The notes beneath the pieces are model-generated. The model ran no database searches, was not told the origin of the DNA, and saw only the letters and a list, made by a program, of their open reading frames with translations. The position numbers were made by a program, and so were the translations under genes. From the NCBI GenBank assembly GCA_017991675.1, contig JAGOQB010000002.1, forward strand, positions 310,001-374,000: DNA of 64,000 nt. Reading direction: 5' to 3'. The stretch comes from Phenylobacterium sp. (GTDB taxonomy: Bacteria; Pseudomonadota; Alphaproteobacteria; Caulobacterales; Caulobacteraceae). Below are positions 12,532 through 39,443 of this stretch, one piece after another; the first letter of the stretch is position 1; every line of letters starts with the position of its first letter.

Positions 12532-12546
12532 GTTCGCTTTAGGTTC
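12532..12546. promoter_or_regulatory. SOS (LexA) box of recN
   Basis: The 15-nt sequence GTTCGCTTTAGGTTC is an exact match to the alphaproteobacterial LexA site GTTC-N7-GTTC. It spans the region between the recN start and the bamD stop and touches the first base of the bamD stop codon. RecN is a classic SOS gene, which supports the call. LexA binding itself is inferred. Confidence 0.75.
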
Positions 12547-13693: not shown

Positions 13694-14065
13694 TCAGGTC
13701 CAAATCCATCCCAAAAGGAAGGGCGTCAAAGAGACGGCAAGGACTGAAAGCAGAAGCCACGCTCCCCATAGGGCGGCGGTGGTCGTTGCGCTCAATTGAA
13801 CTGGAAGCACGCTTCTCGCGCCCCAGATCACCGCCACATCGACGAGTAGGACAGCAAAGAAAGTCAGGGCGGCAGGAACTTGGAGCGCTGCCAGTGGGTA
13901 GATCATGGAATGGGGAAAACCCATACCGCCCCAATCAACGACCTCGTGAAGCCGCCGTGCGAGGCCGCTAGGCTCGCCCAAGTCCCAACTCCATAACTGC
14001 CTCTGCAATGCGACGAAGCTAGCAGCGAGCGGGGTCAAAACCAGCGCACGTGGAAGGCGCATCAT
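13694..14065 (-). CDS. unrecognised small membrane protein, second gene of SOS-box operon
   Basis: This is a 123-residue protein that I do not recognise. It has a short hydrophobic N-terminus (about 6-20), a long hydrophobic stretch at about 57-86 and another at about 95-119, so two or three membrane helices are likely. Charged residues cluster at 22-45. Its ATG-ATG start lies one base after the stop of the upstream gene (14,067), so translation is probably coupled. Base use is less GC-rich at third positions than in bamD and lpxC on either side, which hints at transfer. If the SOS box upstream of the operon works, this protein would be made after DNA damage. Confidence 0.6.
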   Translation of the reverse strand: MMRLPRALVLTPLAASFVALQRQLWSWDLGEPSGLARRLHEVVDWGGMGFPHSMIYPLAALQVPAALTFFAVLLVDVAVIWGARSVLPVQLSATTTAALWGAWLLLSVLAVSLTPFLLGWIWT

Positions 14066-14066
14066 G

Positions 14067-14474
14067 TCACTTGACGATTATCTGGCCGTTTTTCTGGGCT
14101 CTCTCGTATTCGGTTCGAGCCAGCCGCCCGAGATCGTCCTCGCCCGACAATCCCATCAGCCGATCGATCCGCGCCTTCTGGGCGGGCGTTAGATAGACCG
14201 GCGCCCCCGCCCGAATGCCCTGAAGAACTTCGAGGTCCTTCATTTCGGCCTCGTTCAGCGCCCGCTCCTGGATGGTGAGAAGCTCCCTATCGGTGAAACT
14301 CGGGCCGACGATAGTCCGAACCGTGTTGCGCAAGTTTGGCTCGATCTCGGGATGCAACTGCATAGCGCGTCGCGCCATCCATCCCGCGCCCCCTACGGTC
14401 TCAAATGCATCGTCGGGCGGCCCCGCCGCGTTCGATTGGGGCGTCGTCTCAAAGGCAAGTCGACCGTAGCTCAT
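14067..14474 (-). CDS. unrecognised soluble protein, first gene of SOS-box operon
   Basis: This is a 135-residue protein with no domain I can name, no signal peptide and no membrane segment. The C-terminal half is helix-prone and charged (TDRELLTIQERALNEAEMKD, then LTPAQKARIDRLMG); the N-terminal 35 residues look disordered. The ATG at 14,474 has GAGGA 5 nt upstream. An exact SOS box (GTTC-N7-GTTC on the minus strand) lies at 14,489-14,503, and a 7-bp stem would pair with the ribosome site. The gene is inserted between lpxC and bamD and is followed after one base by a membrane protein gene. Function unknown. Confidence 0.65.
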   Translation of the reverse strand: MSYGRLAFETTPQSNAAGPPDDAFETVGGAGWMARRAMQLHPEIEPNLRNTVRTIVGPSFTDRELLTIQERALNEAEMKDLEVLQGIRAGAPVYLTPAQKARIDRLMGLSGEDDLGRLARTEYERAQKNGQIIVK

Positions 14475-14479
14475 GCATT

Positions 14480-14503
14480 CCTCGTTCGGAACAAACGAGG
14501 AAC
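14480..14503 (-). promoter_or_regulatory. SOS (LexA) box and ribosome-site hairpin of the 14,474 operon
   Basis: Read on the minus strand, 14,489-14,503 is GTTCCTCGTTTGTTC, an exact GTTC-N7-GTTC LexA site ending 15 nt before the start codon. The overlapping dyad CCTCGTT-N7-AACGAGG (14,480-14,500) would form a 7-bp RNA stem whose 3' arm holds the GAGG ribosome site. The first is a DNA site, the second an RNA fold; both are predictions from sequence. Confidence 0.65.
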
Positions 14504-38985: not shown

Positions 38986-39054
38986 GAACATACAATGAAC
39001 AATTTAAGTATAGCCGCCGCGTCTGTGGACGGCGGTGGATAAGCGGGACGGAAG

Positions 39055-39443
39055 TACGGACCAGACGGCCTATAAGCCGGGTTCTGTGCCGCCCGCGAAC
39101 GGGCGCGACGATCATTCCTCTGGACCGCCCATTGCTGGACGGTTCTCGCGACCTACCCGGACGCCTCAGGCCTATGACGGCCCTACCCCTTGCGGGGCGC
39201 GGAATCCCTATTCGGTCTTGCTCCTGGCGGGGCTTGCCATGCCGTCCCTGTCACCAGGTCCGCGGTGGGCTCTTACCCCACCCTTTCACCCTTACCCCGG
39301 TCGAAACCGGGGCGGTCTGCTCTCTGTGGCGCTATCCCTGGGGTCGCCCCCGGCGGGCGTTACCCGCCGCCATGTCATAGTGGAGCCCGGACTTTCCTCG
39401 ACTGCCTAAGCAGCCGCGATCGCCCGGCCGTCTGGTCCGCGCG
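39055..39443 (-). ncRNA. rnpB: RNase P RNA (class A)
   Basis: This is the catalytic RNA that trims tRNA 5' ends. Read on the minus strand, it starts near CGCGGACCAGACGGCC, which pairs with GGCCGTCTGGTCC at the 3' end to form stem P1. The universal block GAGGAAAGTCCGGGCTCC lies near the 5' end, and the 3' half has ACAGAACCCGGCTTATAG, the conserved P4 partner and end. The length of about 385 nt is normal for alphaproteobacteria. The ends are set by the P1 stem and are uncertain by a few bases. The reading frames drawn across this stretch are not genes. Confidence 0.96.

What the first reader, a model, noticed from the sequence alone, without database searches (positions are those of the whole stretch)
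13694..14503. Two-gene operon of unknown function under a predicted SOS box, beside lpxC and bamD
Seen directly: an exact GTTC-N7-GTTC (minus strand, 14,489-14,503) lies 15 nt before the start of a 135-residue soluble protein, and a three-helix-type membrane protein gene starts one base after its stop. Established: this motif is the LexA site of alphaproteobacteria, and Caulobacter makes small SOS-induced division inhibitors (SidA, under LexA). Inference: a soluble plus membrane protein pair induced by DNA damage and located between envelope genes and close to ftsZ could be an undescribed checkpoint or envelope-response module. Neither protein matches a family I know.
Basis: partly seen in the sequence, partly recalled or inferred. 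Interest (0 to 1): 0.75.

Follow-up and report, generated by a model that had tools for sequence, protein, structure and literature searches.

The report
DNA-damage-controlled toxin-immunity gene pair
Two small unknown genes beside lpxC sit under a DNA-damage switch and look like an antibacterial toxin with its protective partner, related to pairs that kindred bacteria carry inside a phage-like element.

Summary
In detail: an exact GTTC-N7-GTTC lies 14 nt before a 135-aa ORF (orfA); a 123-aa membrane-protein ORF (orfB) follows one base after its stop. All 18 distinct orfA-family ORFs in hand have an exact box near the probable start, and 15 of 18 are followed by an ORF with two or more predicted membrane spans. 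Between lpxC and bamD, where the cassette is absent the box is absent too (0 of 25). The box travels with the cassette.

The "checkpoint" reading is not supported. Eight of the 18 lie among head genes of a phage-like element, where other positions carry unrelated toxin-like genes (lysozyme, hydrolase-fold) with small membrane or secreted partners. One N-terminal tag links element-borne orfA homologues with hydrolase-like proteins (E 1.2e-5), a polymorphic-toxin feature that the window orfA itself lacks. The window cassette diverges far more from its orthologue (dS 0.78, 1.11) than its neighbours do (0.13-0.19).

Best explanation: an SOS-derepressed, bacteriocin-like toxin (OrfA) with a membrane immunity protein (OrfB), of no known family. 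Toxicity, immunity, induction and delivery are inferred.

The parts
14489..14503 (-). GTTC-N7-GTTC box (LexA/SOS-type operator) of the cassette
   Evidence: exact match; near the probable start of 18 of 18 orfA-family ORFs; absent from 25 of 25 lpxC-bamD gaps without the cassette
14478..14483 (-). probable ribosome-binding site GAGGAA
   Evidence: sequence read by eye
14477..14503 (-). 12-bp hairpin that contains the box and the ribosome-binding site; not general to the family
   Evidence: fold -16 kcal/mol, z -3.7; of 12 family members folded, only the window and L012 copies form a comparable stem
14067..14474 (-). orfA, 135 aa, predicted toxin; conserved C-terminal part of about 110 aa
   Evidence: ORF; family alignment A3 of 14; no known family; element-borne homologues share an N-terminal tag with hydrolase-like proteins
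13694..14065 (-). orfB, 123 aa, predicted membrane immunity protein
   Evidence: ORF; an ORF with two or more predicted spans follows 15 of 18 orfA ORFs; alignment A4 of 13

Best explanation
orfA-orfB is a mobile, DNA-damage-induced toxin-immunity cassette of bacteriocin type. LexA bound at the GTTC-N7-GTTC box keeps it silent; on DNA damage LexA is cleaved and both genes are transcribed. OrfA is a small soluble antibacterial protein whose conserved C-terminal part (about 110 aa) is toxic. OrfB, a membrane protein, protects the producer, which suggests that OrfA acts at the inner membrane or in the periplasm. The cassette belongs to a repertoire of exchangeable pairs that these bacteria carry inside a boxed phage-like element; some copies, as here, stand alone in the chromosome. 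Release by lysis of damaged cells, perhaps with the phage-like particle, is the likely exit route.

Shown here: box, gene order, co-occurrence, presence and absence at this site, cassette divergence, position of homologues among head genes, shared tag in element copies. Inferred: repression by LexA, toxicity, immunity, target, release and uptake.
For: Box with 18 of 18 orfA-family ORFs; homologues were found by protein sequence or by a coat-protein search, not by the box. An ORF with two or more predicted spans follows 15 of 18 (the script took, among nearby ORFs, the one with most spans). Of the other three, L012/L033 keeps an orfB remnant, L086 shows the start of one in its DNA (by eye), L022/L034 has none. 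Cassette and box come and go together between lpxC and bamD: 3 with both, 25 with neither, of 28. Against the G022 orthologue dS is 0.784 (orfA) and 1.114 (orfB), against 0.125-0.192 for recN, bamD, lpxC and ftsZ; dN/dS 0.18 against 0.03-0.04. Homologues lie among head genes in G010, G115 and viral contigs. Other positions there hold a lysozyme (Pfam 4.4e-11), a hydrolase-fold protein (Thioesterase 3.9e-6, just over its cut-off), and sub-threshold matches to Abhydrolase_1 (0.0012) and DUF6973 (3.2e-4), several followed by small membrane or secreted proteins. Tag MDxDDDxxxLRxxAxDxxADN: query from an orfA homologue finds two hydrolase-like proteins at 1.2e-5 and 3.7e-5 and a third at 0.0023; a second tag links two other clusters (1.1e-6); a third motif crosses clusters only weakly (0.004-0.05). 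Boxes in 43 genome elements run with the operon: 92 against 5, control 5 and 4; in 81 viral loci 69 against 16, control 11 and 13. Caulobacter LexA consensus GTTCN7GTTC, with natural boxes GTTCttgttatGTTC (PMC12700426, passages read).
Against: No member has a recognised toxic domain, and no fold could be predicted. The window orfA lacks the N-terminal tag. Three of nine orfA-positive genus genomes have no coat match (G022, G096, G108), so this particle cannot be the general delivery route. Box control may be shared with or taken by an S24-type repressor, relatives of which occur in all nine orfA-positive genus genomes, though that association is not significant (p 0.20) and box number does not depend on it (17.8 against 20.3 per genome, p 0.30). 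The genome's lexA, uvrA and recN boxes have spacers unlike the cassette boxes. Several copies are truncated or decayed (L012, L019, L022, L089). The 18 ORFs are not all independent (L023 and L024 nearly identical). 'Hydrolase-like' for the tag-sharing proteins rests on a sub-threshold Pfam match of one of them and a GxSxG-type motif seen by eye.
Confidence: 0.6

Rival explanations
1. A DNA-damage checkpoint or envelope-stress module of the host: OrfA-OrfB act in the producing cell to delay division or adjust the envelope, as SidA does in Caulobacter.
For: SOS-type box and a small membrane protein; near ftsZ.
Against: Found in 9 of 101 genus and 10 of 390 family genomes; at least four kinds of location, including phage head genes; more divergent than its neighbours. 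A checkpoint should be conserved.
Confidence: 0.1
2. A lysis pair: OrfB a small holin-like membrane protein and OrfA its partner, releasing particles or bacteriocins after SOS induction.
For: Soluble plus membrane gene, SOS-type box, in phage elements.
Against: Some elements carry separate lysis-like genes: a lysozyme in G010, GH19-like and DUF2514 (spanin-like by eye) genes in G000, both sub-threshold. orfA has no hydrolase signature above chance; the tag is shared with hydrolase-like proteins of another kind.
Confidence: 0.1
3. A prophage-borne defence or exclusion module that kills or arrests cells during phage attack or DNA damage.
For: Small paired genes with patchy distribution, some in prophage-like elements, are typical of defence genes.
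Against: No PADLOC model matches at E up to 0.1 (9 proteins); all 18 family members have the SOS-type box, which is not a usual defence trigger (recalled).
Confidence: 0.12
4. Concerns the switch only, and is compatible with the toxin reading: the box is the operator of the element's S24-peptidase repressor, not of LexA; the cassette belongs to that prophage regulon and is induced by RecA-stimulated cleavage of that repressor.
For: HTH plus Peptidase_S24 repressor beside a box in G000; relatives in 80 of 101 genus genomes and in all 9 with orfA; T-rich spacer of cassette boxes differs from lexA, uvrA and recN boxes.
Against: Genomes without it hold about as many T-rich boxes (17.8 against 20.3, p 0.30); Caulobacter LexA boxes can have the same T-rich spacer (PMC12700426).
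Confidence: 0.15

Closest known systems
MuF polymorphic toxins of temperate phages (Jamet et al. 2017, PMC5576092; passages and Discussion read)
   Same: Toxins encoded beside portal and packaging genes of prophages, variable C-terminal domains, small downstream ORF as candidate immunity gene, proposed loading into the head.
   Different: No MuF domain in the scanned proteins; cassettes at several positions between portal, scaffold, coat and connector genes, many with their own SOS-type box; short N-terminal tags instead of a structural domain; stand-alone chromosomal copies. The words SOS and LexA do not occur in that paper's main text.
Colicin-type SOS-controlled bacteriocins (recalled)
   Same: LexA-type operator directly before a toxin gene with its immunity gene; membrane immunity protein as for pore-forming colicins.
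   Different: 135 aa, no colicin domain found; chromosomal; no known family.
Bxa prophage-encoded polymorphic toxin of Bacteroides (PMC11699363; outline, abstract and opening paragraphs read)
   Same: Prophage toxin with exchangeable toxic parts and dedicated immunity proteins.
   Different: ADP-ribosyltransferase of an unrelated host; no SOS box compared.
SidA, SOS division inhibitor of Caulobacter (recalled; sidA is named in a passage of PMC12700426)
   Same: Small SOS gene of a related bacterium.
   Different: Host checkpoint protein; no toxin-immunity pairing (recalled).

Membership tests
SOS (LexA) regulon member | GTTC-N7-GTTC operator near the start, conserved in homologues | tested here: met
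   18 of 18 orfA-family ORFs
SOS (LexA) regulon member | LexA binding and induction by DNA damage | not testable with these tools
   no expression or binding data for an orthologue
Polymorphic toxin system | one N-terminal region joined to different C-terminal domains | tested here: inconclusive
   met for element-borne orfA homologues and hydrolase-like proteins (E 1.2e-5); not met by the window orfA, which lacks the tag
Polymorphic toxin system | dedicated immunity gene directly downstream | tested here: inconclusive
   membrane-protein ORF after 15 of 18; protective function not testable here
Polymorphic toxin system | toxic activity of the C-terminal domain | not testable with these tools
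   no known domain; needs an expression assay
MuF toxins | MuF domain (PF04233 or PF06152) | tested here: not met
   not among Pfam matches of 14 orfA-family members or of 10 cassette proteins
Colicin-like bacteriocin | receptor-binding, translocation and killing domains | tested here: not met
   no such domain by PDB sequences, NCBIfam or Pfam
Known anti-phage defence systems | match to a PADLOC model | tested here: not met
   no match at E up to 0.1 for 9 proteins including OrfA and OrfB

The most novel reading that the evidence does not exclude
Phenylobacterium-type bacteria keep a widespread, integrase-poor phage-like element as an SOS-triggered weapon: a short-tailed particle whose head genes are interleaved with exchangeable toxin-immunity cassettes, the toxins being loaded through short N-terminal tags and ejected into competitors. 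Stand-alone cassettes such as the window's orfA-orfB are spare or satellite weapons under the same DNA-damage switch.
Probability: 0.2. Interest if true: 0.9.

Novelty: new variant of a known kind. Interest (0 to 1): 0.68.

Why it matters
It gives a defined, testable toxin-immunity candidate of no known family with a built-in induction switch, and points to a reservoir of such pairs: element coat genes occur in 45 genus genomes (of 390 family genomes searched; two of the 45 are weak or partial) and relatives of the element's repressor in 80 of 101 genus genomes. If the toxins are carried by the particle, this would be a protein-delivering podovirus-like machine in environmental alphaproteobacteria and a new place to look for antibacterial enzymes. 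I found no paper describing it among the listings; subscription journals and bioRxiv are not held.

Tried and rejected
Family searches for OrfA gave only chance-level matches: best Pfam 0.015, PHROGs 0.1, NCBIfam 0.072, PDB sequences 0.37. OrfA had no match in plasmid or phage records at E up to 0.01. One of the four loci, L013 (a Hymenobacter MAG), was dropped: the match of 62 residues lies inside a 1195-aa protein of another kind, it did not pass the profile search, and the contig holds no box. The hairpin over box and ribosome-binding site is not put forward as regulation, because of 12 family members folded only L012 besides the window has a comparable stem. Long lpxC-bamD gaps in L245, L247 and L248 are not cassettes (for L245 and L247, where the gene looks like a pyridoxamine-phosphate-oxidase-type protein by eye; in all three no orfA, orfB or box was found). 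I first took the lysozyme plus secreted protein of G010 for a second bacteriocin; as another element has a lysozyme without that partner (L147), it may simply be the endolysin. Its NCBIfam match to a Bartonella gene-transfer-agent endolysin is far under the cut-off (19.7 against 315 bits), and none of the other nine proteins of that call matched a gene-transfer-agent family. 'Late genes directly under a box' holds only for some: 14 of 63 portals, 10 of 31 genome portals at 65% identity or more, have a box within 600 nt upstream. Rows dropped before counts: accessory ORFs shorter than 90 aa, on the minus strand, outside -9.5 to +2.3 kb of the coat gene, or overlapping core genes; 2 of 30 lpxC loci without bamD in view. 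Only the best 30 of 94 lpxC loci and the best 30 of 37 mraZ loci were inspected.

Full report
What is there. The minus strand reads lpxC, a 15-nt GTTC-N7-GTTC box, orfA (135 aa), orfB (123 aa), bamD and recN (lpxC named by eye). The box is 14 nt from the orfA ATG. recN has its own box at 12532-12546. In the window alone the motif is not striking (4 matches, 1.44 expected).

Relatives. A protein search found orfA homologues in 4 of 60 close genomes, with a second copy in the window's own genome 22 kb away. A profile search found 9 of 101 genus genomes and 10 of 390 family genomes in 2 of 22 genera. A scan of genome contigs gave 4 loci, of which record titles name Phenylobacterium for two and one (L013) proved a chance match; a scan of viral contigs gave 3. 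With loci brought in by a coat-protein search, 18 distinct orfA-family ORFs were in hand. They are not all independent, and several are truncated. Eight lie in the phage-like element or its viral contigs (G010, G115, L023, L024, L076, L086, L089, L093); the other ten are elsewhere in chromosomes or on a contig without head genes in view. All 18 have an exact box near the likely start, 17 co-directional and one (L185, another genus) reversed. An ORF with two or more predicted spans follows 15 of 18.

Box and cassette travel together. Of 30 lpxC loci, 28 have bamD in view: 3 carry cassette and box, 25 carry neither, including a genome whose LpxC is 97% identical. Against its G022 orthologue the window's recN, bamD, lpxC and ftsZ are 98.6-99.1% identical (dS 0.125-0.192, dN/dS 0.03-0.04), while orfA is 80% (dS 0.784) and orfB 68% (dS 1.114), with dN/dS 0.18 for both. 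The cassette is constrained but exchanged or fast-evolving, as toxin-immunity loci often are (established knowledge).

The wider system. In the element, orfA-orfB lies among terminase, portal, scaffold, coat and connector genes, after the coat gene in most and between scaffold and coat in G010. PHROGs calls the G010 proteins portal (3.7e-148), major head protein (2.3e-80) and virion structural proteins, and an L024 protein scaffold (6.6e-33); 'P22-type' is my label. The coat gene is found in 50 of 390 family genomes, 45 of them in the genus. A HTH plus Peptidase_S24 repressor stands at the edge of the G000 element. Relatives occur in 80 of 101 genus genomes; comparing the lists, in 22 genomes it is on the same contig as the coat gene, about 6-26 kb away, in others (G115, G034, G068 among them) on a different contig. 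Integrase genes are found in all five genomes checked, but none on the coat contig in four of them; in G010 one lies about 12 kb from the coat gene. Other positions between head genes carry accessory ORFs: 378 in 218 clusters after filtering, not all real genes. They include a hydrolase-fold protein, a lysozyme and sub-threshold Abhydrolase_1 and DUF6973 matches, and, by eye only, glycine-zipper proteins, a protein ending in a GRHRPW-type motif in the window's own genome (L154), and tandem arrays of CxxxCDD membrane-anchored proteins that could be immunity genes. Hydrolase-like genes sit between portal and scaffold; a DUF6973-like gene of L156 and a tag-bearing gene of L149 sit after the coat gene, as orfA does. 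Among 382 N-terminal 90-aa stretches, one tag links orfA homologues with hydrolase-like proteins (E 1.2e-5, 3.7e-5), a second links two other clusters (1.1e-6), and a third is weak (0.004-0.05). The tag is not in the window orfA.

Regulation. In 43 genome elements the box occurs 92 times along the operon and 5 times against it; the backwards motif gives 5 and 4. In 81 viral loci it is 69 and 16 against 11 and 13. Genus-wide, GTTCNNNNTWTGTTC occurs 2000 times against 50 control matches; genomes with and without the repressor relative do not differ (20.3 and 17.8, p 0.30). This favours LexA over the element's repressor, and a Caulobacter study gives GTTCN7GTTC as the LexA consensus (PMC12700426, passages). 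The different spacers of the genome's lexA, uvrA and recN boxes keep the alternative open.

Function. No library or PDB sequence search recognised OrfA, and Pfam and PADLOC did not recognise OrfB. Toxicity and immunity are inferred from architecture and company. The membrane partner suggests an inner-membrane or periplasmic target. Delivery is unknown: 3 of 9 orfA-positive genus genomes lack a coat match.

Known and new. The kind, prophage-linked polymorphic toxin with immunity partner, is known (MuF toxins, PMC5576092; Bxa, PMC11699363), and SOS control of bacteriocins is established (recalled). New here, as far as the searches went, are the protein family, the box-bearing cassettes between head genes, the short tags and the stand-alone copies.

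Noticed in passing
window 38986-39000 (-): A GTTC-N7-GTTC box between the RNase P RNA gene (39057-39435 -) and mraZ (named by eye), the start of the division and cell-wall cluster, has a counterpart in 26 of 30 genus loci at -195 to -232, with consensus GTTCNNTGTATGTTC in most (13 of them aligned). It suggests damage control of that cluster or a distinct regulator.
   Followed up: partly
L150 and other element loci (cluster 0): Tandem arrays of small membrane-anchored proteins with a CxxxCDD-type motif; the cluster has 27 members, 16 with a box upstream; possible immunity-gene arrays.
   Followed up: partly
G000:C11 about 192-220 kb (L249, L154, L250): The window's own genome carries a phage-like element with six co-directional boxes and one opposed, an S24-type repressor, GH19-like and DUF2514-like (sub-threshold) lysis genes and, by eye, two further toxin-immunity-like pairs.
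   Followed up: yes
G000:C6:301726-302202 (L006, L021, L212): Second orfA-orfB cassette with its own box beside an aminotransferase-like gene; the same site holds a cassette in G026, and G022 has a truncated copy beside the same acetyltransferase-like gene.
   Followed up: yes
window 14477-14503 (-): The box and the ribosome-binding site of orfA lie in a 12-bp hairpin that is not general to the family.
   Followed up: yes
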